Below are positions 7,901 to 61,920 of a stretch of DNA of 64,000 bases, in pieces. This DNA is from Siphonodentalium dalli (lineage: Eukaryota; Mollusca; Scaphopoda; Gadilida; Siphonodentaliidae). Within the stretch, counting starts at the first letter, position 1. Every line of letters starts with the position of its first letter. Under the pieces are notes generated by a model, which had not been told where the DNA came from, did no database searches, and worked only from the letters and a program-made list of their open reading frames with translations. The stretch covers positions 4,264,976 through 4,328,975 of the forward strand of contig CP136069.1 of assembly GCA_032622095.1 (NCBI GenBank), given 5' to 3'. A program made the position numbers and the translations under genes.

Positions 7901-10900
7901 TATGGATTTTATCTTCTGCTAATTAGGGGATATAGAAACTTCCCAGATGGGAAAACGTAACTAAAAACAATGTTAATTTGATACCATAGATAGTTCCCAG
8001 AAAATGAGGCCTAAGCAGAATGAGGTCCCCAGAGGGTGAATTTAGTGATGCTAGCCCGCTATGCGGGATAACATCACTAAATTCACCCTCTGGGGACCTC
8101 ATTCTGCAAATGACAGACACACTATTTGCAGGCTTGATAATGTGTATGTGTGATATGGTGTGGTATCATGATAATGTCTATGTGTGATATGGTGTGGTAT
8201 CATGATAATGTGTGATATGGTGTGGTATAATGTGTATGTGTGATATGGTGTGGTATAATGTGTATGTTTGATATGGTGTGGTATAATGTGTATGTGTGAT
8301 ATGGTGTGGTATAATGTGTATGTGTGATATGGTGTGGTATAATGTGCATGTGTGATATGGTGTGGTATAATGTCTATGTGTGATATGGTGTGGTATAATG
8401 TGTATGTGTGATATGGTGTGGTATAATGTCTATGTGTGATATGGTGTGGTATAATGTGTATGTGTGCTATGGTGTGGTATAATGTGTATGTGTGATATGG
8501 TGTGGTATAATGTCTATGTGTGATATGGTGTGGTGTATGTGTGATATGGTGTGGTATAATGTCTATGTGTGATATGGTGTGGTATAATTGGTATGTGTGA
8601 TATGGTGTGGTATAATGTGTATGTGTGATATGGTGTGGTATAATGTCTATGTGTGATATGGTGTGGTATAATGTATATGTGTGATATGGTGTGGTATAAT
8701 GTCTATGTGTGATATGGTGTGGTATTAATGTCTATGTGTGATATGGTGTGGTATAATGTGTATGTGTGATATGGTGTGGTATAATGTGTATGTGTGATAT
8801 GGTGTGGTATAATGTGTATGTGTGATATGGTGTGGTATAATGTGTATGTGTGATATGGTGTGGTATAATGTCTATGTGTGATATGGTGTGGTATAATGTG
8901 TATGTGTGATATGGTGTGGTATAATTTGTATGTGTGATATGGTGTGGTATAATGTGTATGTGTGATATGGTGTGGTATAATGTCTATGTGTGATATGGTG
9001 TGGTATAATGTGTATGTGTGATATGGTGTGGTATAATGTGTATGTGTGATATGGTGTGGTATAATGTCTATGTGTGATATGGTGTGGTATAATGTCTATG
9101 TGTGATATGGTGTGGTATAATGTGTATGTGTGATATGGTGTGGTATAATGTCTATGTGTGATATGGTGTGGTATAAAGTGTATGTGTGATATGGTGTGGT
9201 ATAATGTATATGTGTGATATGGTGTGGTATAATGTGTATGTGTGATATGGTGTGGTATAATGTGTATGTGTGATATGGTGTGGTATTAATGTCTATGTGT
9301 GATATGGTGTGGTATAATGTGTATGTGTGATATGGTGTGGTATAATGTCTATGTGTGATATGGTGTGGTATAATGTGTATGTGTGATATGGTGTGGTATA
9401 ATGTGTATGTGTGATATGGTGTGGAATAATGTGTATGTGTGATATGGTGTGGTATAATGTGTATGTGTGATATGGTGTGGTATAATGTGTATGTGTGATA
9501 TGGTGTGGTATAATGTGTATGTGTGATATGGTGTGGTATAATGTGTATGTGTGATATGGTGTGGTATAATGTGTATGTGTGATATGGTGTGGTATAATGT
9601 CTATGTGTGATATGGTGTGGTATAATGTCTATGTGTGATATGGTGTGGTATAATGTGTATGTGTGATATGGTGTGGTATAATGTGTATGTGTGATATGGT
9701 GTGGTATAATGTCTATGTGTGATATGGTGTGGTATTTTTCTGTTTTGTTAAATTGATACTGTTGAAATCATGTTTTTTTAATAAATCTGTGATTTTACAT
9801 TGTAGTATTACATTGTAGTAAACAGTGATTGGTTCTTTGAACTAAATCACAATAAAATATAGCATTACAAAAACCCATCTTTGTTGAATTGAATCTTAGT
9901 TTTAGTGACCCCTGAACTGTATACTTTTCCATGTTGTGATTTCATGGCAAATTTTTATAGCGGTAGATCAGGGGGGGATTGTTTTCGGGCACGTATGCCA
10001 TGGTGGGTGGGTGGACAATGGGACCAACAAACAATTTTTATATCATGTCTTGAAAATAGTATGTCTTGAAATAGTGTGTCTGTCATTTGCATATCGAGGT
10101 CCCCACCCTTACATTTTCTAAGTGTACACTTTCATTGTAAGTGTAGTTCAGGTATACATGTATACTACACTTGCAGCTGTTCTTTTTTTTAATTCAGTAC
10201 ACTTGTACCACACTTACGTTTTCGAAATGTAGGCTTATTTTGTAAGTGTAGTATAAGTGTACACTTGCTCTACACATATGAGACTTTTAAAATGTTTGGG
10301 CATGCTGCCCGCACTTACAGCTACACTTATTGTACTTTGAAAATATCTATCTACACTTATGCCACACTTATGATACTTTTAAAATGTTTGGGAATTTTTT
10401 AACGCTGCCCACACTTGTAGGTACACTTATGGAACTTTGGAAAGATTGATCTACACATATGATTATTAGCAGATAGCATTTTGTATCAGATTTTTGCTAA
10501 AATTGTTCAACTAACTGATTACGAAACGTGCCAGCTGGCTCGGCGTATAAATAAAAAATGTAGCACGTGCCAGAGATGCCAATGTCGAGCCAAGCGAAGA
10601 TAGCCTGACCCGAGTTTGGTGCGACATATAAAACAGGGTTAACTTACCCATACATTCTCCATCAACGAGTCGGTAACCTTTAGCACATAGACATGTGTAA
10701 CCTCCATTCTTGTTGACACATTGGTGACTACATGGATTTTCTTCACATTCATTCACATCTAAAAGAATAATAAAATGAAAGTGTCAATGAAACTGTAGCT
10801 CAACTAAAATAATTTTAAGCTGAGCAGTCAATAGAAGAAGAAGAAGAAAAGTCAAAAAGTTTCAGTAAATGGATTCTATTGTGTAAATGAAACAATTGTC

Positions 10901-13900: not shown

Positions 13901-16900
13901 TGACTTTTTTTTATTGATTTCTTTCTCGATCGATCAGGGTCGATGGTCTTTTGCGCGGTATATTTGAAATCTTGAACAGATGGATATATAAAAGTAATAT
14001 CTCATCAATTTATTATACTAAATTTGTAGATAATATATTTTTAAAAGTTTTAATTATGTGTTCAGAATCCCGCCGATAGCACAACAACGGCCGCGTCCGT
14101 AGTTACATTACAACCGGAAATAATATTCCGATGCTCCGACATAACCTGATTTCGCAGAGTAAATTTGTGCAATAAAAGCAGAAAGATCCACTTTGAGTCA
14201 TCAATTTGGAATTGCAATGTTCGAGTTCTCAAATTAAACAACAATTGTGACACTAAATGAATATGTTTCCCAACATTTGGTTTGTGGAGAAGTTCACCTA
14301 CATTAAATATTGATCAAATTTCGTCTTCGTCGAAAATTCGCTACCAGTGAACCACGTGTTTCTGTTTCGTTTTTTTTCATTTTGTCAGCCAATACGAGAC
14401 TGAGAACATACTCTATGTCAACATTTTTTAATATTTAGGAAGGCAAGGTGGAAATACGTGCCTGCATTATGATGTTAGTCCATTAAAAAAAATATTATTA
14501 TAAAAATCTTTTTTCACGGGTGAAGTGACAATCATAATGGAACTCGACAGGAAAAACATCCCAATGGCCAGTTCCGCAACTGTCACGCTGATATTTTGCT
14601 TAGCTGTGGCCGATTTAATTACGGCTGGGGAAAATGTTCATATTGCACTATTTGGAAATATAAAATCACCACTTAAGAAATAATACATAATCCAATATAA
14701 ATATCAATTTCAAGTTGTCATATTTTACATAGATTACCCTCGCGGCCACGCATAACGCAATCAACAAGGAAGCGTCTCTGACAACAACTTTCGTTTTCGT
14801 CGAAACCACGTGTTTCTATTTCGTTTGTTTTCATTTTGTCGGCCAAAACAGTATTCTAAGTAAACATTTTGCAAATCTAAAGCCTAGCAAAGGAAGAAAG
14901 GATTTAATATGTGCCCTTCATGATCTTAACCACCAGCAGAAAAAAACACAATCAATGTAAATCGTCATTATTACTCTTTATTCGAGTCTCAAATCCGAGT
15001 GTTGAAAACGCAAAAATTAAAGACGTCAAAAGACGATACGGACGCTACAACAAAAGACGTCAAAAGACGATACAGACGCTACAACAAAAGACGTCAAAAG
15101 ACGATACGTTGGAATAAGGGTTAATAGACTTTCCCTAAACCTTATAAAATACCACTAATATAATGATGTTGTAAGAGTTTTCTGAAATTACTGGTATTGA
15201 TTCACCAATATTTTTCAAATTACTTGGGAATTAAAAAGTGACTTACCAAAACTTTTGCAAAATGAAAATATTTTTTGCCAAATGTGAATTATTTTTGCCA
15301 TTGGCAAATTTGGCAAGTGGCAGCGCGAACCCTGACTAGGACCAGGTTGTAAAGGCAAATGCACTTCTCATTTCTATAGTCCGTCGACAATCAATGATGA
15401 AATAGAAGAGACTACTGACCTTGACAAAGCTGTGTTCGTGGATTTCGCTCATATCCGTCACGACATCCGTGTACACATTGAAACGAGCCAATCGTATTCA
15501 CACAGTCCTGTCCCTCATCACAAAGATTCAGCGTGCCAGAACATTCATCGATATCTATACATAATGACAAAAATCGTATGAAACACAGAGCATTCATCGA
15601 TATCTATAAATAATGACAAAAATCGTATGAAACACAGAGCGATGTATTTATATTGATATATACTCAAGTCTGGATAGTGTCTCTGATATTTGCAGAATGA
15701 GGTTCCCAGAGGGTGAATTAAGTGCCACTACCCCACACAGCAGACGAGCATCACCAAATTCACCCTCTGAGGACCTCATTCTGCTTAGGCCTCATCTTCT
15801 GCGAAGTACCAATAGTATCAAAATAACATTGTTTTTAGTTACTTTTTCCCTTCTGTTCAGTTTCTATATCCCGTAATTTGCAGATGATAAATTGCATAAT
15901 CAAGGTGACTAATGGGTGAACATCACCAACTTCAACTAGGAACTTCAAGAGATCAATCATTCCTAAAAGAAAATAAGTTTTGTTTTTAGAGATAGTATTT
16001 AGTAACCAACCTCGACAGTTATGTCCGTCCGTCTGTAGAGCATAGCCAATTGGACACGAGCATGAGTAGCCGCCGGGTGAGTTATGGCAATAATCGGAAC
16101 AAGGACTCAATCGTGCGCACTCATCATCATCTGAAGTGAAATAGATCTGGGTGTCATACTGGTATCATACTGGTATCTTACTGGTGTCATACTGGTGTCA
16201 TACTGGTATCATACTGGTATCATACAGGTATCATACTGGTATCTTACTGGTGTCTTACTGATATCTTACTGGTATCATACTGGTATCATACTGGTATCAT
16301 ACTGGTATCTTACTGGTATCATACATGTATCATCTGGTATCATACTGGTATCATACTGGTATCATACTGGTATCTTACTGGTATCATACTGGTGTATTAC
16401 TGGTATCGTACTGGTAGCATACAGGTATCTTACTGGTGTCTTACTGATATCTTACTGGTATCATACAGGTATCATACTGGTATCATACTGGTATCTTACT
16501 GATATCATACAGGTATCATACTGGTATCTTACTGGTGTCTTACTGATATCTTACTGGTATCATACAGGTATCATACTGGTATCATACTGGTATCTTACTG
16601 GTATCTTACTGGTATCATACTGGTATCTTACTGGTATCATACTGGTATCTTACTGGTATCATACTGGTATCATACTGGTATCTTACTGGTATCTTACTGG
16701 TATCATACTGGTATCTTACTGGTATCATACTGGTATCTTACTGGTATCTTACTGGTATCATACTGGTATCATACTGGTATCTTACTGGTATCATACTGGT
16801 ATCTTACTGGTATCATACTGGTGTCTTACTGGTATCTTACTGGTATCATACATGTATCATACTGGTGTCATACTGGTGTCATACTGGTATCATACAGGTA

Positions 16901-19900
16901 TCATACTGGTATCTTACTGGTATCTTACTGGTATCATACTGGTATCATACTGGTATCTTACTGGTATCTTACTGGTATCATACTGGTATCATACTGGTAT
17001 CATACTGGTATCTTACTGGTATCATACTGGTATCATACTTGTATCATACTGGTATCATACTGGTATCATACTGGTATCATACTGGTATCATACTGGTATC
17101 ATACTGGTATCATACTGGTGTCTTACTGGTATCTTACTGGTATCATACTGGTATCTTATTTGTATCATACTGGTATCTTACTGATATCATACTGGTATCT
17201 TACTGGTATCATACTGGTATCATACTGGTATCTTACTGGTATCATACTGGTATCTTACTGGTATCATACTGGTGTCTTACTGGTATCTTACTGGTATCAT
17301 ACATGTATCATACTGGTGTCATACTGGTATCATACAGGTATCATACTGGTATCTTACTGGTATCTTACTGGTATCATACTGGTATCATACTGGTATCTTA
17401 CTGGTATCTTACTGGTATCATACTGGTATCATACTGGTATCATACTGGTATCATACTTGTATCATACTGGTATCATACTGGTATCATACTTGTATCATAC
17501 TGGTATCATACTGGTATCATACAGGTATCATACTGGTATCATACTGGTATCATAATGGTGTCTTACTGGTATCTTACTGGTATCATACAGGTATCATACT
17601 GGTATCATACTGGTATCATACAGGTATCATACTGGTATCTTACTGGTGTCTTACTGATATCTTACTGGTATCATACAGGTATCAGACTGGTATCATGCTG
17701 GTATCTTACTGGTATCTTACTGGTATCATACTGGTATCTTACTGGTATCATACTGGTATCTTACTGGTATCATACTGGTATCATACTGGTATCATACAGG
17801 TATCATACTGGTATCATACTGGTATCTTACTGGTATCTTACTGGTATCTTACTGGTATCATACTGGTATCTTACTGGTATCATACTGGTATCTTACTGGT
17901 ATCATACTGGTATCTTACTGGTATCATACTGGTATCATACTGGTATCTTACTGGTATCTTACTGGTATACTGGTATCTTACTGGTATCATACTGGTATCT
18001 TACTGGTATCATACTGGTATCTTACTGGTATCATACTGGTATCATACTGGTATCTTACTGGTATCATACTGGTATCATACTGGTGTCTTACTGGTATCTT
18101 ACTGGTATCATACATGTATCATACTGGTGTCATACTGGTATCATACAGGTATCATACTGGTATCTTACTGGTATCTTACTGGTATCATACTGGTATCATA
18201 CTGGTATCTTACTGGTATCTTACTGGTATCATAATGGTATCATACTGGTATCATACTGGTATCTTACTGGTATCATACTGGTATCATACTTGTATCATAC
18301 TGGTATCATACTGGTATCATACTGGTATCATACAGGTATCATACTGGTATCATAATGGTGTCTTACTGGTATCTTACTGGTATCATACTGGTATCTTACT
18401 TGTATCATACTGGTATCTTACTGATATCATACTGGTATCTTACTGGTATCATACTGGTATCATACTGGTATCTTACTGGTATCATACTGGTATCTTACTG
18501 GTATCATACTGGTGTCTTACTGGTATCTTACTGGTATCATACATGTATCATACTGGTGTCATACTGGTGTCATACTGGTATCATACAGGTATCATACTGG
18601 TATCTTACTGGTATCTTACTGGTATCATACTGGTATCATACTGGTATCTTACTGGTATCTTACTGGTATCATACTGGTATCATACTGGTATCATACTGGT
18701 ATCTTACTGGTATCATACTGGTATCATACTGGTATCATACTTGTATCATACTGGTATCATACTGGTATCATACTGGTATCATACTGGTATCATACTGGTA
18801 TCATAATGGTGTCTTACTGGTATCTTACTGGTATCATACAGGTATCATACTGGTATCATACTGGTATCTTACTGGTATCATACAGGTATCATACTGGTAT
18901 CTTACTGGTGTCTTACTGATATCTTACTGGTATCATACAGGTATCATACTGGTATCATACTGGTATCTTACTGGTATCGTACTGGTATCATACTGGTATC
19001 TTACTGGTATCATACTGGTATCTTACTGGTATCATACTGGTATCATACTGGTATCTTACTGGTATCTTACTGGTATCATACTGGTATCTTACTGGTATCA
19101 TACTGGTATCTTACTGGTATCATACTGGTATCTTACTGGTATCATACTGGTATCTTACTGGTATCTTACTGGTATCATACTGGTATCATACTGGTATCAT
19201 ACTGGTATCTTACTGGTATCATACTGGTATCATACTGGTATCATACTTGTATCATACTGGTATCATACTGGTATCATACTGGTATCATACAGGTATCATA
19301 CTGGTATCATACTGGTATCATAATGGTGTCTTACTTGTATCTTACTGGTATCATACTGGTATCTTACTTGTATCATACTGGTATCTTACTGGTATCATAC
19401 TGGTATCTTACTGGTATCATACTGGTATCTTACTGGTATCATACTGGTATCTTACTGGTATCATACTGGTGTCTTACTGGTATCTTACTGGTATAATACA
19501 TGTATCATACTGGTGTCATACTGGTATCATACAGGTATCATACTGGTATCTTACTGGTATCTTACTGGTATCATACTGGTATCTTACTGGTATCATACTG
19601 GTATCTTACTGGTATCATACTGGTATCATACTGGTATCTTACTGGTATCATACTGGTATCTTACTGGTATCATACTGGTGTCTTACTGGTATCTTACTGG
19701 TATAATACATGTATCATACTGGTGTCATACTGGTGTCATACTGGTATCATACAGGTATCATACTGGTATCTTACTGGTATCTTACTGGTATCATACTGGT
19801 ATCATACTGGTATCTTACTGGTATCTTACTGGTATCTTACTGGTATCATACTGGTATCATACTGGTATCATACTGGTATCTTACTGGTATCATACTGGTA

Positions 19901-22900
19901 TCATACTGGTATCATACTGGTATCATACTGGTATCATACTGGTATCATACATGTATCATACTGGTATCATACTGGTATCATAATGGTGTCTTACTGGTGT
20001 CTTACTGGTGTCATACTGGTGTCATACTGGTGTCTTACTGGTGTCTTACTGGTGTCTTACTGGTATCATACTGGTATCATACTGGTATCATACTGGTATC
20101 TTACTCACTTCTTAACACTTTACCCAACAGAACGGCCCTGTGCCAATGCATTCTCTTATATATGCGAGTAGACCATAGGTCGCCTCGCATATATAAGAGA
20201 ATGCATTGGCTTAACACATATTAAAAATGATAAAATTGTCAAAGAATGTAGAAAAATATTATAAAAATTGTTAAAAAATGTATAAAGACAAAATTATAAA
20301 ATTGTTAAAGAATGTAAGAAAAAATGGTAAAAAATGTTAATTTTTTTTTTTTTTTAGGCCAATGCATTCTCTTATATATGCGAGGCGACCTATGGTCGAC
20401 TCGCATATATAAGAGAATGCATTGGCACAGGGCATAACTGTAAACATCACAATGTGGTCAATGAACCGGTTCCAATGATATCCATATTTGTATGGTGTTA
20501 TTGAGACAGACCGAAGATATTTTAGGCTGTTGAAGCTTTATTTGGGCGTTTTTGGCCGCTTTGTTGGGTAAAGGGTTAATCGAAAATCATTTATAAAATG
20601 AGATGCGGATGGTGCCAGGATTTATTAAATGAGAGTGCCGTCTGCAATGAGTTTCTTAAAAGATTCGAGATCGAGCTTCTGGAAGTTCGTAAACTAGATG
20701 GTCAAGGGCGTACCCCGAGACCATTTAGTTTACGAATGTCCAGTAGTAGCCCATTAACTGACTTAAAATACAGTTTTATACAAGGAGAAATTACATTGAT
20801 ACAGATGAAAAATTCTGATAAATGAGATGTTTACGAACATTTTTCTGGGGCAAAATTGTCCTTGGCAGACAGCAAAACCTCGCCCTTGACATTTGAGTGG
20901 AAATTGCACGTCAATTTTGTCATGTTAACAATTGTCTAGGCATATACAACAGTCCAGTAGAGTTTTGTTAGAAATTAAACGTTGATATAGGCAAACATAT
21001 AATAAAGTATTTGTTTTCACTGTAAATATAACATAGTATATATATAATATTTTTTTACCCAAAATATGTATCTCCTATAAACTCAGGTGGGTTTTATGGA
21101 CATAGTCGGATTATCTGCCTCGTGGCCTCCTCCTCTTCAAGAATTCTAATTATAACCATTAGTTTCAGTGTCCAAGATATATTTGACGGATATATAATAT
21201 TTTTTTACCCAAAATATGTATCTCCTATAATAAATATCTTGGACACTGAACACAGCAAGGGCCCTCCCAGTTGGGATCAACATTCCCGCCCCGTGCACTC
21301 GGTCAAACGCATCAAACACACAGGAGGAAGAAATTTAAATGAATGAGGTCTTGTCTTTCAATCGCTGTTATAGTGAAAGGACTCGCATGATTGGTCCAAA
21401 TATATAATCGCCATTAATTGGCATTTGACAAGTGCGCGTACTCGAGGTATTGCGTACCGATTTTTAAAACGACTTCTAGAAATCTTGCAAGCAAGAAATA
21501 TATAACCATTAGTTTCAGTGTCCAAGATATATTTGATGGAGATACACTGTCCACGCAATTATCTGTATTTTGGGCATGAATGCAATTTAGGATACTTTTT
21601 ACTTGCGAATTATCAAAGCAATATCGTTCTGTGCAGAAGATGAACAGTAACTCTATTATGATGACGTGTTATGTTTGAATGTGATAGATACAACTGGTAT
21701 GCAAATTAATATGCTGCCTTTTCTTATAAGGAATTTTATTACATGGGGTTTATAAGCAATATGTACATGTTTGTTATTGTGGGCGGATGTTAGAAGCGAA
21801 CTATTTCTTGAATTGAGGTCCCCGTGGGAGTTCGTTGTGTACAAATTGGGAGACATGACCACTCTGGATTACGAATGTCGACTTGTGGTATAAAGCATCG
21901 ACTTGTGGTATAAAGCATCGACTTGTGGTATAAAGCATCGACTTGTGGTATAAAGCATCGACTTGTGGTATAAAGCATCGACTTGTGGTATAAAGCATCA
22001 TACCACAACTTGTGGTATAACATAGTATATATATAATATTTTTTTACCCAAAATATGTATCTCCTATAAACTCATATAAAATAACCCATAATTCTGCTGT
22101 GGTTAAGGTGTCGATTATTTAGGGCATTACATTACAAAGGAGCTGGGTTTTAAGTAGGGTTATTTTAGTGACACCTACCTATACAGTATGAACCTTCATC
22201 TAGATTGAAACCTTGTGGACATTTGTTGCTTGGTGTTCCTGTAAAGGACAGAATATAAGCATTACCCTCTTTAACGCTGACTGATTTCATGATGTTGTGC
22301 ACTGGGCTGTTGATTTTATGGAGAAAGTTGCACAAACCATAAAATTAACACAAGACAAAAGCTTTTATCATACACAATCTTCCTCGCGAAATATGATTAC
22401 TTTATATTATATTTTGCGGTAGTACAATTTGAAATGGCACTTTAACCCATTCATGACGGGAGCTGCTCTGGTGCAACGTTAAAGACCCTCTGCCAATGCG
22501 TTCTCTTATAAATGCGAGTCGACCATAGGTCTCCTCGCATATATAAGAGAATGCATTGGCCTAACAATTTTTTATCAATTTTTCTTATATTCTTTACAAT
22601 TTTTATCATTTTTTCTTACATTATTTAACAATTTTTATCATTTTTATAATTTTTTCTTACATTCTATAACAATTTTTATCATTTTTTCTTCTATTCTTTA
22701 ACAATTTGATCATTTTTATCATTTTTTCTTACATTCTTTAACAATTTTAACTTTTTTTTTTATCATTTTTCTTAGGATCGGACAGATTTAAATCCAGTAA
22801 ACTCACTATCTTCTACGGTCATTGGGGTATATTAATTTAGAGATTATTTCTACGGTCATCGGGGTATATTAATTTAAAGATTAACATCTTCTACAGTCAT

Positions 22901-52900: not shown

Positions 52901-55900
52901 TAACAGATGGACGGACAGACGGATGGAACCCATTCCTAAATTCCCCACCGAAAATTATAATAATGGTTTTATAAATAAGCTCTTGTATTGCTTAATACTT
53001 ATTGAACCATATACAGTAATGCCCTAATTAATGGGTAATGGGCAGAATTATGGGTAACTTTTCAGGATTTAGTTGGAAATATGGCTTGTTGCCATTCATC
53101 GGAAAGCTCTCCCCTGAGAGCTTTCCAATGAATGGCAACAAGCCATATTTCCGACTAAATCCTGAAAAGTTACCCATAATTCTGCTATGGTTAAGCAGTC
53201 GATTAATTAGGGCATTACAGTATGTCTCCCTGAGGACAATATAAATAAATAGAGGATACCTATGGCTTCTGACTGAATACAATAATTACCATGAGTGGGT
53301 TCAAGCAAATACCGATTTTCCACGAGTACTTGTATTTGCCTGTAACCCACGATAAATCTTGTGTTCAGTCAAAAGCCATATTCCTTTTTATGATATGCGG
53401 TTTCGTATTTCAATTTACAATTATTGCTCTAAGGTGATTGTTTTGCCGAATTAAATGTAGACGAAAATAACATTTTCAATAGAAAATACATATTCCCTAA
53501 TAAGATACTTACACACTGAACTACATGGTATATTCATCTTTATTCACAAGAAAGGATTCTATGAGATCCGTTTAAAAAAATTTATTTTGGTACGAAATAG
53601 CTTAAGTACCTTTTGAATCATTTATTATTATGACGTAGCAGTTCAAGGTCATTTGTCCACTCGTTATGTATATAAGCAAGTGGACCCACAGTAAACGGCC
53701 TCTTTTTATCCTCTTACAAGATTCGAGGGGTGTGACCGAGCAGCGGGGAGGGAAAATCCCAATTTGGGAGGGACATGTGAGTTCAGTGTGTAAGTATCTT
53801 ATTAGGGAATATGTATTTTCTATTGAAAATGTTATATTCCCATCAAAGATACGTTACACACTGAACTACATGGTAGAATCAACTCATAGGAGGAGGCTGC
53901 GAGGAATGAGATACTATGGTATTTTAGTTGAGAATAATTCTTTTGAACCTGCTGAGTTTTTTAGCAACAAATGGATCAAAAGGTACTGATTTGCAGATTT
54001 GATTGATGCTACCAGGTAGAGTGGAGAAAGTGGGAGAATAAGCCCAATGGCTGAAACTCTGCACCTCCCCCCTTTGGTTCTGAAGTCAGACAAACCTGTA
54101 ATTGTGAAATCTCATATGCAGGTACATGCATGTGCCACCTCCTCCCTGGAGTAAGCTGGTTATATGCAGAAAGCATAGGTCACCCAGCTCCATGGTATGT
54201 GACTGAACGAACCAAGCTATCCCGTCGTTTCCACACCAGAGGAAGGAAATCTATTGTTACCTGAATGGTCAATCTGGATGTAACACGAGGAAGTAGCAAC
54301 TGTAAAGACGATTAGAAACATACCACCAACTCATGAATGGTGAAGAAAACCCAGAGTTAAATAGCCACTGCATCATGCTTGTAAGGTCTGCGACCGACTG
54401 TCAGTAAATGTGCAACCCCAAATCGACAAACTGATCAAGGCGCAAAATAAGTATTTTCTGACTGACCGTCAAATGACAGTATTTTACTTCAGTTAATAAA
54501 TACACCAGACAGAGGCCATATTCCGTCGGTCAATGCCCCTGATCGGAATTTACTTTAAGGCTGGACACTGGTAACAAAACCCCAGGTAACTAAGTCGATC
54601 AAGAGCGTTAAATGACTTGGAAAGTCCCAAAATGTTTTCTGGTATCGAAACAATCGAGAAGAAAAAGTTCGGAGAGTCCTGAGTTGTAAACTACTTCCAC
54701 AGCCTGTCAATTCAATAGTGTATGCAGTTACATGTACACATGATTGAAAGGAATACTTTGCAGTCTGCATGTAACTTATTAGAAAATGTGTAGAAGGAGG
54801 AGACCCATCGTGATGGAACTACTCCAAACAATCTGAAAGAAAGGACAGGCCATGGATGATAAAGGTCTAAAAACAACCAGAATGTTGATAACAAGAAGAT
54901 TGTATCTTCTTGTTATTCACTGATTGTTCTTAACAGACGAAGGGCCCGGGTCCATGAGCTGTGTGTAGCTCACCTCATCCACCAAGGCGAAAGTACACAG
55001 CAATGCCCAAAGCAACCGACCACCCAACCACAGCAGAACCACGGGCAACCCTTCAGGACCCAACCGGAAACACGGCCCGCCGCCACCCATCGGAAAGCTC
55101 TCGTCGAGAGCCCCCCGATGAACAGCAACAAGCCACACCACCGACCAAATCCCGAAAAACCACCCACATCTCCGCCGCAGCCAAGCGGCCAAACACCCCG
55201 AGCACCACTGTACACCCATTCGACATGGTCAAGGAAGTACGCCAGTAATGTGAACAGAAGGGCACATTTTACTGAAGACCAATCACATGTGTGTATGGTC
55301 GGACGGTTGTCTGCCGCTCATACAGCGAGGACCCGGACCCTAGTTCCTCCCCGCGGGCAGAGACTCTGTTGCCAACAATGATTGCCTCATGTGCGCCGTT
55401 AGACGAATAGCTCGTCTGTTGTGTAGTAATTCAAGACAGCCTGTCAAAAAAGGAGCACTGAGTACAGTAACGCCCAAGCAGTAACGCCCAAGCAGGGCAT
55501 CAATGAGTTTTGTTGGCATGACGCAGGGCTCAAAGTTCTGAAATGCACCTGTTCCCATGGAACAGGTTATTACCTACCGTACCCGCCACCCCAGAAGATT
55601 GCGTGAGTTCAATTGTCTATATCGTAACCCGATAAGCGAACCCAAACTGTAAAGCCATAATATTGAGCGCGAATAGATCTAATCCTGGTGCTACAGGGAA
55701 AGCTCATTGGGATTGTCCTAAGGCTGTAGAGTCAAAAGATGATGAATGTTCTACGCAAAGAGAAATATGATTCCCAACTTGGTTCGCAGACAAAACCCAG
55801 CCCAACACTGCAGAAGGCCCGAGTGATGCTCGCAAAATCTTAGAAGGAATCCAAGGCTTGGTGTTATGCCCCATGGAACCGTAGTAAGGGTGAAAGATGA

Positions 55901-58900
55901 TCTGTGTAAATTTACAACTAGAAGAATCGAACGGTCACCCATAAACAAAGGACAATGCTAATCAGTGACAGGTGGAAAGGTAATAAGTTTGGGCCCAGGT
56001 AAAACCGCATGAAAAACAAATTGAGTGTCTGTTAAAAGTCTCTGCCCCGGCCGATGACTGCGCTATGTTCACTGTTATAGATAGCACCCGAGATTACCCG
56101 GCATTAGACGGCGCGCTGTCTGGTGGCCCAGTGCTCGGTCCCCCCTCGAACCCCCCAGGACCCATATCCGAGGAGAGAAACTGCGTCTGCAACCCCTCGA
56201 TGCCTTGCAATTAACTTAGTTCTTTGTTACAGACAAGAAAAAGCAGCAAGAGCTCTTCGAAATCCAAGTGAGAATCAGGATTCGCGTTGGATGGCAAGTA
56301 GCCCTGTTAATTAGAAATGTAATCTAAATGTGGAATCGTCAAGATCCAAGCAATGGATTTTGTTATCTTTAGAGTAAAAAACTGAATAAACAGGACTGTG
56401 TAAGCCTTGGAAGAGACATCGAGGAGTGATTAATGAGCAGACTGATTCCCCCCTAACCGGAGCCAGCTTAAACCCTGACAGGAAGCAGAATCATACAGTG
56501 TAGCCAGTAGGGCAGCGGCGACCTACTAGGTCACGACACGAATCCAGAAACCTGACCAACAGGACGACACCACACTAGTGTTTCTAAATGCACACAATCT
56601 GCATTGAACTACATGTTGAATGGGCAGAGCAGTCAAATATACATAGAATGAACCGAAACTTTTAGATGACACGAGCCCAAGATCTGAGATATTACTCGAT
56701 TCGAGTATCACCCCCCCCCCCCCAAGACAGTGACTATGAAACGCTACCGCCCCAGTGGCTACACTGGTACAACTTGCCTCCCGCCAAATAGCAAGCATTT
56801 GAGGGTCACGCAGAGTCCCGGGAAATGGTCTTAACAGCAATTCCACCCGAGGGTAGACGCCAGGGAGCAACTTACTTGGAAATTTTGATTATCAAATAAA
56901 TAGCCTCACATGGACATGATGAGATAGTATTTTGTTCTCAATCTCAAAGTTGACATAAAATTCATACCAAATTGCATGGCTATTATCCAAGTTTGGATGG
57001 CAAATTGTGATGCGATACCAGTTAAGTTGCTCCCTAGGGGGCTGACAGATTTTGTACATCGCACATGCTTGTGAAAGGGATGTGGGAGGACGAAATCTGA
57101 GGTAGGATCCAGCAGGAGCGGGCGAGCATGGTCGGATCCGTGAACACTGGAACCCACCCTCGGAACAGTATGGCGTCTGGCTACAGTGAATTCAATGGTG
57201 AAGTATGCGGCTGGGCCACCTCAAGGTCCGCATGGAACGAGGAATTGGATTAGCCTGAACCTGCTTGACAATGGGGTTACTGAAACCGAGGCCACACGAG
57301 GAAGAAAATAGCCTGTGGTATGACCAGTTACATGTATAAGGATCAGGAAAGGGACCCAAAAATTTACCATGAAATTAGGTGACTGATGCGTCACATTATT
57401 ATTTGTGAAATTGTGTCATATTGATCTGACAAAAAAGTTATTTTGTTGGCAAACAATCTCAACGTATTGTAAATTATTTCATAGTGAACTAGTTATGAGC
57501 CAAGCAAAACCACACAAGTGAGTTAATTCATAGATAAACGAAAAGGGACCCAAACCTGATCCCTAATTTTGCTACATATGTCAACATGAAACAGATTTGT
57601 GAGTGACAATTTCAGAATTTCGACGTAAACAAAACGAATGTTGTCACGTGCCAATTTCAACATAAACAAAGTTATAAACCAATGTTGTCTCACTGGTTGA
57701 ATGTTCTAATACTTTCATTCTAAAACCACAAGAAACAGAGATAACATAACAACTGTGCTGTATAGGCATTGTCCCAGAAAGTTCAACACGTGAACCGCTG
57801 CATATAAACAGACGAAGTGCAATTCCGAAATTAATTCCGAATTCTAAACCACGTGCTCCGAAACCGGAAGTTGGGAAATTACCCACAATTTTCAACAGAA
57901 CAATATAGTTTGTGTATTTTATTTGCGTTAAAACAAATAAAACAGGGAAATTGAATGAAATTGTCACTCTGATATTAATTTAATAATTATTGTGTCGTTT
58001 CCAAAATTGAACCGATGTCACAACAAGTTAAAAAATGTGGAACGGAATTGTTAAATGAAGCCGACAATAATATGTGGTTTCATTTCTCATAGCATTAGTT
58101 TTTACTTCCCTTCGAATCTTGTCACAAGAGAAAAAGAGGCCGTTTACTGTGGGTCCACTTGCTTATATACATAACGAGTGGACAAATGACCTTGACCTGC
58201 TACGTCATAATAATAAATGATTCAAAAGGTACTTAAGCTATTTCGTACCAAAATAATAAATTTTAAACGGATCTCATAGAATCCTTTCTTGTGAATAAAG
58301 ATGAATATACCATGTAGTTCAGTGTGTAAGTATCTTATTAGGGAATATGAATCAGCTGTTCGCCAACTGATTGACTCGTCTTTGGCTCAGATAATTATAA
58401 AACAAAACTCAATATCGCTCTGTAACGTGCATTTACATAAGAGATCAGTACAGACTATCGCCATAAGAAGATGACATCATTTACTTCAACGATAACAACA
58501 TAATAAAGGCTATTTATACAAAAAGCAAATAAAATTCCAATATTAGCCCGCTGGGACAAGTGATTGATACGCCGTTTATTTCCCGACCGTTTAGAGCTAT
58601 TTCACTGTGGAGCATATAATAAATTGCCAGATTTACATAAAAATTATCTAAATAAAAACGAATTGAGGAGGGCACTAAAATTGGGTCGGGAGAGGATGTA
58701 ACTCTAGCATTATTTTTATATTGGGCTAATAATCAAATAGGGGGAAATGGCTGTGTAGAAACCTCTAGGCTGGTCCATGTTACTATATCACAACTCCCTG
58801 ATGACGTTAAATGACTCACTACAAAACCTACTCATCCCGTTTATTTATAGTCCCTGTCTTGGATGAGCATCACCAAATTCACCCTCTGGGGACCTCATCC

Positions 58901-59723: not shown

Positions 59724-59962
59724 TACCCTGTGCCAATGCATTCTCTTATATATGCAAGTCGACCATATGTCGCCTCGCATATATAAGAGAATGCATTGGC
59801 CTAACAATTTTATATCATTTTTTTATTATAAATTTTTCTTACAATTTTTAGGACATAAAATAAAAAACATCCATTACCCTGCAGGGAGCCCCACACATAT
59901 ATAGAATCATATAGAAGAGTGTCGTCTGCTCATGTTTGTCTGGGGCTCTGTATGGGTGAAAT
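59724..59962. mobile_element. Composite HP-C plus HP-E element
   Basis: ACCCTGTGCCAATGC start, HP-C palindrome, AT-rich spacer, then HP-E beginning ACCCTGCAGGGAGCC. Related arrangements are at 61555-61806, 62362-62578 and, inverted, 62667-62892. It starts about 70 bp upstream of the TSP1 exon acceptor. Confidence 0.75.
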
Positions 59963-60103
59963 TGTGATCCGTAATTATTTTGTTCTTATTTTCATAATAA
60001 ATAACTCTCAAATAACGAGATTTCACAATCAAAAACTTTGTTATGTAAACATTACTGTTACAGTGGAATTACCAATCAATGTCCTATTAGTCCATGCAAT
60101 ATT

Positions 60104-60190
60104 AACCCTTTATAGAGCCCCACATAGACTGGAGCAGACGACACTCTGCAGTGCATGCTTCCATCTGTGTGGGGCTCCCTGTGGGATAAA
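60104..60190. repeat. HP-E hairpin
   Basis: AACCCTTTATAGAGCCCCAC with GGGGCTCCCTGTGGG. Immediately followed by HP-A as at 7408-7882. Confidence 0.82.
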
Positions 60191-60198
60191 TCTCTTAA

Positions 60199-60597
60199 TT
60201 AACCCTTTACCCAACAAACCGGCCAAAACCGGCCAAATAAAGCTTCAACAGCCTAAATTATCTTCGGTCTGTCTCAATAGAACCATACAAATATGGATAT
60301 CATTGGAACCGGCTCCTTGACCACATTGTGGTGGTTACAGTTGTGCCCTGTGCCAATGCATTCTCTTATATATGCGAGTCGAACATAGGTCGCCTCGCAT
60401 ATATAAGAGAATGCATTGGCCTAAAAAAATCTTTTTTAAACACTTTTTACCATTTTTTCTTACATTCTTTAACAATTTTATAATTTTTAATGTGTTAAGC
60501 CAATGCATTCTCTTATATATGCGAGGCGACCTATGGTCGACTCGCATATATAAGAGAATGCATTGGCACAGGGCCCTTCTGTTGGGTAAAGGGTTAA
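60199..60597 (+). mobile_element. HP-A element, TTAA flanked
   Basis: TTAA at 60199-60202 and 60594-60597. Typical ends, two HP-C cores. Confidence 0.9.
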
Positions 60598-60607
60598 ACG
60601 ACAGATA

Positions 60608-60754
60608 CAGTAATGCTCTAAGTAATCGACTCTTTAACGACAGCAGAATTATGGGTAACTTTTCAGGATTTAGTCGGAAATATGGCTAAATAATCCTGAA
60701 AAGTTACCCATAATTCTGCTGTCGTTAAGGAGTCGATTACTTAGAGCATTACTG
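60608..60754. mobile_element. HP-B foldback with shortened centre
   Basis: Both outer arms are nearly perfect inverse copies, but the centre from GGCTTGTTGCC to its partner is deleted. The TA flank is seen at the left. Confidence 0.85.
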
Positions 60755-61158
60755 CAGCTAGAACGGTTTGGTGAGAAGTCTTATATAAACTGAACGCCTC
60801 TAATATTTAATGATCAAGGCTCAAAATAAGTGGCCGGTCATGGTCATTGTCCGACGAAAATAGATTATGTCCAGTGCACAGGGTCACGGTGGGATTGGAT
60901 GCTCACTAAAATGTGCGTCTCATTGACGAATAATAAGTCAATTGGAAATTTAAATACTTTCTCATACAATACATCTGAATTTTCACAAGCAACATTTTGA
61001 AATGACCAACACCATCCATGTGATTACTTTTGTCTTTACGGCTCTTATTTTTAATTGTGAGGCCAAGAATGTATGACTTCGTTATCAATATAACAAAATA
61101 TAGGACAAATTAAATGACATGAAATAGCACTGCCGTATTAAACAGATGTAGTCCTTAA

Positions 61159-61374
61159 CAGTAAATGCCCTAAATAAATCAACTCCTTAATCAAAGCAGA
61201 ATTGTGGGTAACTTTTCAGGATTTAGTCGGAAATATGGCTTGTTGCCATTCATCGGAAAGCTCTCAGTGAGAGCTTTCCGATTAATGGCAACACGCCATA
61301 TTTCCGACTAAATCCTGAAAAGTTACCCATAATTCTGCTGTGGTAAGGAGTCGATTATTTATAGAGCATTACTG
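61159..61374. mobile_element. HP-B foldback, complete
   Basis: CAGTAAATGCCC to GAGCATTACTG, followed by TA. Both arms are present with centre GGAAAGCTCTCAGTGAGAGC. It served as the main reference for the copy at 54998. Confidence 0.9.
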
Positions 61375-61446
61375 TAGTCCTTTAATTTACTCAGCCAGTA
61401 AACAATGAGGAGCAAAGAAGAACAAATCAAATATAAATTGATTATC

Positions 61447-61920
61447 CCTTTCAGTGCCAAGTCCGATTTTTGTAGCAACCCATATTTCTTTGATCATTTT
61501 TCAAATTTATTGATTATAATAATGTGATACATTGATGGAAAGAGCTCTAAGAGCCTTGTGCCAATGCATTCTCTTATATATGCGAGTCGACCATAGGTCG
61601 CCTCGCATATATAAGAGAATGCATTGGCCTACCAATTTTTTATCATTTGTTATTATTTTTTACAATTTTTTACAATTTTAATAATTTTTTCTTATATTCA
61701 TTAACAATTTTATAATTTCACCCATACAGAGCCCCAGACAAACATGAGCAGACGACACTCAGTACACATGCTTCTATGTATGCTTGGGGCTCCCTGCAGG
61801 GTTATTAACACTCTGGATGTTTTTTCCATCAATTTATCACATTATTATAATCAATAAATTTGAAAAATGATCAAAGAAATATGGGTTGATACAAAAATCG
61901 GACTTGGCACTGAAAGGATT
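61447..61920. mobile_element. Foldback with CCCTTTCAGTGCCAAG ends holding HP-C and HP-E
   Basis: Inverted ends about 100 bp long (CCCTTTCAGTGCCAAGTCCG and AATCGGACTTGGCACTGAAA) with further pairing through TTGATCATTTTTCAAATT. Inside are one HP-C palindrome (61555-61630) and one HP-E (61716-61806). ATTAT lies on both sides. This is a third outer terminus around the same core. Confidence 0.85.

What the first reader, a model, noticed from the sequence alone, without database searches (positions are those of the whole stretch)
54998..55210. A hairpin transposon copy with about three quarters of its T residues turned to C: a DNA fossil of ADAR hyper-editing
Seen: the segment aligns over its full length with the HP-B foldbacks at 53015, 60608 and 61159, but keeps 12 T in 213 bp, compared with 65 in 216 bp for the 61159 copy. 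By hand, about 49 T to C changes against roughly a dozen of all other types. Both arms change T to C on the same strand, which mutation of double-stranded DNA would not give, and the change stops at the hairpin ends. Known: ADAR enzymes deaminate A to I along long RNA duplexes, and I is copied as G. Inference: a minus-strand RNA containing this hairpin was hyper-edited and copied back into DNA. DNA editing in an RNA:DNA hybrid or another strand-specific deaminase remains possible.
Basis: partly seen in the sequence, partly recalled or inferred. Interest (0 to 1): 0.93.

Follow-up and report, generated by a model that had tools for sequence, protein, structure and literature searches.

The report
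RNA-edited hairpin fossilised in retrotransposon
A small hairpin inside a jumping element of an animal genome carries, in nearly all copies examined, what looks like the mark of the RNA-editing enzyme ADAR written into the DNA, which suggests that an edited RNA was copied back into inherited DNA and then multiplied.

Summary
Confirmed and extended. Against nine other copies of hairpin repeat HP-B, window 54998-55210 has 50 of 64 T turned to C, 25 of 32 per arm, but 3 of 65 A turned to G; the nine copies together show 4 of 460 T to C. As minus-strand RNA it still forms a 113-pair stem with 58 G-U and no A-C pairs. T followed by C (5'-GA on minus) often escaped, as expected of ADAR. New here: the hairpin is nested in a 4.9-kb non-coding repeat (53465-58348) whose inverted ends, extension and internal circle-junction copy match DIRS1-like retrotransposons. 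That anatomy makes minus the sense, and edited, strand. All 40 hairpin-ranked copies (window included) and 13 of 15 further flank-ranked copies keep the hairpin with C at 46-51 of 51 sites; two are broken inside it. Likeliest history: editing of the element's RNA, reverse transcription, integration, amplification from one founder. ADAR-type domains exist in the genome. No empty site was found within 3 mismatches; the search for an autonomous partner did not complete.

The parts
54998..55210 (-). hyper-edited HP-B hairpin (MITE with TA-flanked ends); minus strand is the edited and folding strand
   Evidence: 50 of 64 T>C; 58 G-U, 0 A-C in 113 pairs of 54991-55217; MFE -138.5 kcal/mol, z -14.5 on minus against -49.9, z -4.3 on plus
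54996..54997 (.). left target duplication, reads CA: inferred TA with its T also changed to C
   Evidence: sequence; TA at 10 of 12 preserved ends of other HP-B copies
55211..55212 (.). right target duplication TA
   Evidence: sequence
53465..58348 (-). host element X: non-coding DIRS1-like element of about 4.88 kb, sense strand minus by its anatomy
   Evidence: left border shared by 19 of 19 other copies fetched, right border by 17 of 19; mean pairwise distance 1.66% over 20 copies
58108..58348 (-). inverted terminal repeat, 5' (left) end of X in sense orientation
53490..53730 (-). inverted terminal repeat, 3' (right) end of X in sense orientation
53465..53489 (-). terminal extension present at this end only (rE of DIRS1-like elements)
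   Evidence: alignment of both ends; definition in PMC3266345 passages
53780..53839 (-). internal complementary region, part matching the 3' end with its extension
   Evidence: 98% complementary to 53463-53522
53840..53883 (-). internal complementary region, part matching the 5' end; together the two parts spell the fused ends (circle junction)
53010..53222 (.). unedited HP-B copy just outside X, used for comparison
60606..60754 (.). unedited shortened HP-B copy, used for comparison
61158..61376 (.). unedited full HP-B copy, used for comparison

Best explanation
An HP-B hairpin MITE jumped as DNA into an ancestor of element X, a DIRS1-like retrotransposon without coding capacity of its own. 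The sense RNA of X (window minus strand) folded the MITE into a long duplex, and ADAR deaminated most of its adenosines (50 of 64 by comparison; 58 of 70 if every present G-U pair was A-U). A reverse transcriptase supplied in trans read inosine as G, and the edited cDNA integrated. That edited copy became the founder of the family, now seen in 53 places, with 405 first-look candidates for its flank. Shown: substitution spectrum, strand, confinement to the duplex, neighbour bias, nested position, DIRS1-like ends, sharing by copies, ADAR-type domains in the genome. Inferred: the RNA step, its order after the MITE insertion, the number of editing rounds, and the enzyme.
For: T>C 50 of 64 against A>G 3 of 65, equal in both arms, against 4 of 460 in nine control copies. 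58 G-U and 0 A-C among 113 pairs of minus RNA, unmatched in the window outside tandem arrays. T before C: 6 changed and 6 kept; other T: 44 changed and 5 kept, the five including one with an undetermined neighbour, three T>A left out (Fisher p 0.005). G depletion upstream is the ADAR mark shared by both species groups of PMC5625713 (passages). ICR and extension put the sense on minus (with PMC3266345 passages). PF02137 deaminase matches at four gene places, best 214 bits. Edits shared by 40 of 40 hairpin-ranked copies, the window's own included, and by 13 of 15 flank-ranked copies, the remnants in the other two being C-rich as well (16 C and 0 T; 23 C and 2 T). X flanks on both sides in 40 of 40.
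Against: About 78-83% editing is above the 'nearly 50%' reported for avian retroviruses (PMC12925331 passage), so several rounds or later selection may be needed. The terminal repeats, about 240 bp and able to pair, show no such mark, though DIRS-1 sense RNA lacks most of its right repeat (PMC5633606 passage). No hairpin-free X was found within 3 mismatches and no unedited X among 55 copies, so the order of events is inferred. No RT, RNase H or recombinase partner was identified. Six G>A changes are not A-to-I on minus; variation of the source copy or CpG decay could explain them, untested. Among 20 copies T>C per T slightly exceeds A>G per A when cells are counted (63 of 23461 against 52 of 31174, p 0.01), but not when distinct sites are (39 of 1195 against 40 of 1590, p 0.25). 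No RNA data.
Confidence: 0.87

Rival explanations
1. Adenine deamination happened on DNA, in an RNA:DNA hybrid or a single-stranded cDNA hairpin during replication of X.
For: ADARs can edit the DNA strand of hybrids in vitro at dA-C mismatches or as mutants (PMC12925331 passage citing Zheng 2017); the DIRS-1 model includes circular cDNA (PMC5633606 passage).
Against: If the sense is minus, the DNA strand of a hybrid and the first single strand of cDNA would be window plus, giving A>G there; that is 3 of 65. A hybrid would also not be confined to the hairpin.
Confidence: 0.05
2. Slow mutation with selection kept the RNA hairpin by G-U wobble while breaking the DNA palindrome.
For: Pairing is kept (0 A-C pairs), and long DNA palindromes are unstable (general knowledge).
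Against: C>T and G>A are the commonest changes among X copies (151 and 132 cells), yet only 6 G>A and 1 C>T stand against 50 T>C in the hairpin. The neighbour bias has no place in this reading, and no intermediate hairpins appear among 55 copies.
Confidence: 0.05
3. A C-rich HP-B subfamily transposed into X ready-made.
For: The C-rich form exists in many copies.
Against: 40 of 40 C-rich copies have X flanks on both sides. A palindromic DNA transposon would by itself not be expected to gain one-strand change in both arms.
Confidence: 0.03

Closest known systems
ADAR-hypermutated avian retroviruses (Rous-associated virus, avian leukosis virus)
   Same: A-to-G clusters in U3 and in an inverted repeat of a reverse-transcribed RNA (PMC12925331 passage)
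   Different: Reported for the viruses; here a retrotransposon family of a genome assembly with the edited hairpin in 53 of 55 copies seen
A-to-G clusters in BLV, HTLV-2 and STLV-3 proviruses
   Same: Edited RNA reverse transcribed and integrated; in BLV a window of about 70 bp (PMC8025556 passages)
   Different: Three BLV proviruses of infected animals, seven or more changes each; here about 50 changes, shared by a multicopy family
DIRS1-like retrotransposons
   Same: Inverted termini, right extension, two ICRs spelling the circle junction, no consistent target duplication (PMC3266345 passages)
   Different: X has no long reading frame and carries a nested DNA-transposon hairpin
APOBEC-edited retroelements in genomes
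   Same: Strand-specific deaminase footprint in integrated retroelements (PMC2873906 passages)
   Different: That is G-to-A from cDNA editing; the same survey saw no excess of A-to-G clusters in high-quality DNA traces of human and Xenopus

Membership tests
ADAR hyper-editing footprint | cluster of A>G on one strand only | tested here: met
   minus-strand A>G 50 of 64, opposite strand 3 of 65
ADAR hyper-editing footprint | located in a long RNA duplex, pairing kept as G-U | tested here: met
   58 G-U, 0 A-C in 113 pairs; MFE
ADAR hyper-editing footprint | depletion of G 5' of edited A | tested here: met
   6 of 12 against 44 of 49, p 0.005; small numbers
ADAR hyper-editing footprint | A preferred 3' of the site (invertebrates in PMC5625713) | tested here: inconclusive
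   neighbour counts; editing too near saturation
ADAR hyper-editing footprint | editing seen in RNA against genomic A | not testable with these tools
   no RNA data
DIRS1-like retrotransposon | inverted terminal repeats | tested here: met
   96% over 245 nt in the window copy
DIRS1-like retrotransposon | ICRs near the 3' end, complementary to both termini and joined as circle junction | tested here: met
   definition
DIRS1-like retrotransposon | extension at the right terminus | tested here: met
   about 25 bp at 53465-53489 only
DIRS1-like retrotransposon | no target site duplication | tested here: met
   by eye in the 15 copies with both ends printed: no consistent duplication; L037 has a possible 4-base match
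DIRS1-like retrotransposon | matching trinucleotides at termini and circular junction | tested here: inconclusive
   ends vary by a few bases between copies
DIRS1-like retrotransposon | encodes RT, RNase H, usually MT, and tyrosine recombinase | tested here: not met
X is therefore called a non-autonomous relative by structure, not a full DIRS1 element
Tc1/mariner-type MITE (HP-B) | TA target duplication at CAGT.../...ACTG ends | tested here: met
   TA at 10 of 12 preserved ends of nine copies; exceptions are the left end of 61158 and the right end of 60754
Tc1/mariner-type MITE (HP-B) | mobilised by a Tc1/mariner transposase | not tested
   no transposase searched; family name recalled from the TA duplication

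The most novel reading that the evidence does not exclude
ADAR editing licensed this element: a perfect hairpin insertion would have exposed X to dsRNA sensing and hampered its replication, hyper-editing wrote a wobble-paired hairpin with few A's into the DNA, and only this edited lineage amplified, so RNA editing acted as a heritable mutator on which selection worked.
Probability: 0.3. Interest if true: 0.92.

Novelty: new variant of a known kind. Interest (0 to 1): 0.82.

Why it matters
It is a clear case of ADAR's mark in inherited DNA: many changes, unedited relatives beside it, a strand predicted by the element's own anatomy, and 53 copies that share it. If right, hyper-edited RNA can be reverse transcribed, integrated and become a retrotransposon founder, so ADAR can act as a germline mutator. 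It also gives a search rule (stems with many G-U and no A-C pairs on one strand, outside tandem repeats) that can be run on any genome.

Tried and rejected
Assembly artefact: rejected, 40 of 40 scored copies share the edits. Ongoing editing of the family: not clearly seen; against the majority base of 20 copies, T>C 63 of 23461 and A>G 52 of 31174 cells (p 0.01, cells not independent), but 39 of 1195 and 40 of 1590 distinct sites (p 0.25); C>T and G>A are commoner. These 20 were chosen by similarity to the window hairpin. Editing of the whole body of X: the sense strand is A-poor, but C and G are equal on plus (1049 and 1050), which A>G alone would not give. Stepwise editing: two sites vary among copies, 55050 (T in 4 of 40 and 6 of 15) and 55173 (T in 13 and A in 7 of 40; T in 10 of 15); 55173 is a CpG, so later decay is as likely as a missing edit. 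The 13 flank-ranked copies that keep the hairpin lack 0 to 24 of its 213 bases (24 in L069). L073 and L075 are broken inside the hairpin. First empty-site pattern lacked two bases and its zero means nothing; the corrected one also gave none within 3 mismatches. The junction pattern lacked the TA too; its one hit is an unrelated HP-B insertion; a corrected unedited-junction pattern was not run. Rfam at gathering scores and tRNA searches of the window gave nothing. Literature: searches were answered; in their listings I saw no report of an ADAR-edited DIRS element or of a germline family with a fixed ADAR footprint; the library holds open-licence papers only. Searches failed.

Full report
Observation. 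Window 54998-55210 has 12 T. Aligned to nine other copies of the same hairpin repeat (several partial; three short fragments left out), it differs at 67 of 217 positions, 50 of them T to C; A to G occurs 3 times among 65 A, G to A 6 times, C to T once, others 7. Each arm has 25 of 32 T changed. The nine other copies, each judged against the rest, have 5 to 18 changes and together 4 T to C among 460 T. Fisher tests give about 4e-19 against A to G in the same copy and 5e-52 against T to C in the controls. No other stretch of the 64 kb is so poor in T.

Structure. Taken as minus-strand RNA, 54991-55217 is a 113-pair stem: 58 G-U, 40 G-C, 12 A-U, 2 U-U, 1 A-G and no A-C. It folds at -138.5 kcal/mol, z -14.5; the plus strand reaches -49.9, z -4.3. 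An ungapped scan of both strands of the window for stems (44 on plus, 40 on minus kept) puts this one far ahead on minus, 58 G-U to 0 A-C, the next being 13 to 3. The twelve plus-strand stems with the largest excess of G-U all lie in tandem arrays.

Neighbour bias. Of ancestral T followed by C (G 5' of the edited A) 6 changed to C and 6 stayed T; of the rest 44 changed and 5 stayed (p 0.005). Three T changed to A are left out. Of the seven A left in the interior of the stem in the majority of copies, six now have a 5' G; in the window copy seven of nine; some of those G may themselves be edited A. Depletion of G upstream is common to both groups of species in a 21-species survey (PMC5625713, passages).

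Where it sits. The own genome (2.23 Gb in 9 contigs) gave 40 scored matches to the C-rich segment at 96-100%, the window's own among them; the 1830 candidates may include ordinary HP-B copies, which were not scored. Copies share far more than the hairpin. In 19 other copies fetched at length the left border is the same in 19 and the right border in 17; in the other two the match ends earlier, one at the end of the fetched piece. Of 20 copies compared, the window included, the mean pairwise distance is 1.66%, range 0.8-2.5%; some have internal deletions or insertions. The unit has inverted ends, no consistent target duplication by eye in 15 copies with both ends printed, an extension of about 25 bp at the window-left end, and an internal segment (53780-53883) whose reverse complement spells the right end joined to the left end. 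These are the marks of DIRS1-like retrotransposons as described in PMC3266345 (passages): two ICRs at the 3' end meeting at a circular junction, a right extension, no duplication. Both the ICR and the extension place the 3' end at window-left, so the sense strand is minus.

Nesting. Preserved ends of nine HP-B copies are flanked by TA in 10 of 12 cases, the duplication known for Tc1/mariner-type elements (recalled). In X the flank is CA on the left, probably TA with its T changed, and TA on the right. The hairpin thus probably entered X as DNA. No hairpin-free X was found within 3 mismatches of the joined flanks.

Sharing. At 51 sites (three-copy reference) the 40 hairpin-ranked copies have 48-51 C (1997 C, 28 T, 12 A, 3 G). 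To lessen the bias of ranking by the hairpin, 40 places were taken by the flank 55230-55600 (405 first-look candidates); the hairpin regions of the 15 not seen before were fetched. Thirteen have 46-51 C and 0-3 T, with 0-24 of 213 hairpin bases missing; two (L073, L075) are broken inside the hairpin, their remnants having 16 C and 0 T, and 23 C and 2 T. All 40 copies of the first set have X flanks on both sides. So one edited founder, then amplification, is the simplest reading. Sites 55050 and 55173 vary between copies and could be late edits or reversions. Among 20 copies there is no clear sign of continuing editing: 39 distinct T>C sites of 1195 T against 40 A>G of 1590 A, p 0.25; counted as cells 63 of 23461 against 52 of 31174, p 0.01.

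Mechanism. If X's RNA is minus, A-to-I in its hairpin, read as G by reverse transcriptase, gives exactly T to C on plus in both arms. Editing of first-strand cDNA would give the opposite strand. The genome has matches to the ADAR deaminase domain PF02137 at four places: C7 54.4 Mb (two matches, best 214 bits), C7 36.4 Mb, C2 111.0 Mb, C4 223.4 Mb (whether each is an active ADAR was not tested). The terminal repeats of X are not edited, although they could pair; in DIRS-1 the sense RNA lacks most of the right repeat (PMC5633606, passage), which could explain it. DIRS-1 is transcribed on both strands (same passage), so the strand argument rests on the sense RNA being the one copied.

What is known. 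ADAR-type A-to-G clusters are on record in reverse-transcribed genomes: avian retroviruses, with nearly 50% of A in U3 or an inverted repeat (PMC12925331, passage), and bovine leukaemia, HTLV-2 and STLV-3 proviruses (PMC8025556, passages). A survey of 603 million traces expected re-integration of edited retroelements to be rare and saw no A-to-G excess in high-quality DNA traces of human and Xenopus (PMC2873906, passages). Eight answered literature searches listed nothing that I recognised as a germline retrotransposon family with a fixed ADAR footprint. Hence a new variant of a known kind: same chemistry and route, but inherited, nearly complete, and multiplied.

Noticed in passing
window 8137-9735: Long G/T-rich tandem array (28-bp unit) almost without C on plus (41 C in 8101-9860).
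   Followed up: no
window 16150-20105: About 4 kb of an 11-bp tandem repeat, open in several frames ([16 protein letters not shown] translations); likely a satellite, not a gene.
   Followed up: no
window 53900-57300: Body of X is A-rich and T-poor on plus with C equal to G; origin of this skew not explained by A-to-G editing.
   Followed up: partly
window 59726-61651: Second dense hairpin family (GCCAATGCATTCTCTTATATATGCGAG...), several foldback copies; another possible ADAR substrate.
   Followed up: no
window 55050 and 55173: Two edited sites that vary between X copies, 55050 not in a CpG: possible trace of a second editing round.
   Followed up: partly
L073 1-215: One X copy is cut inside the hairpin and joined to other sequence; the break lies in the palindrome.
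   Followed up: no
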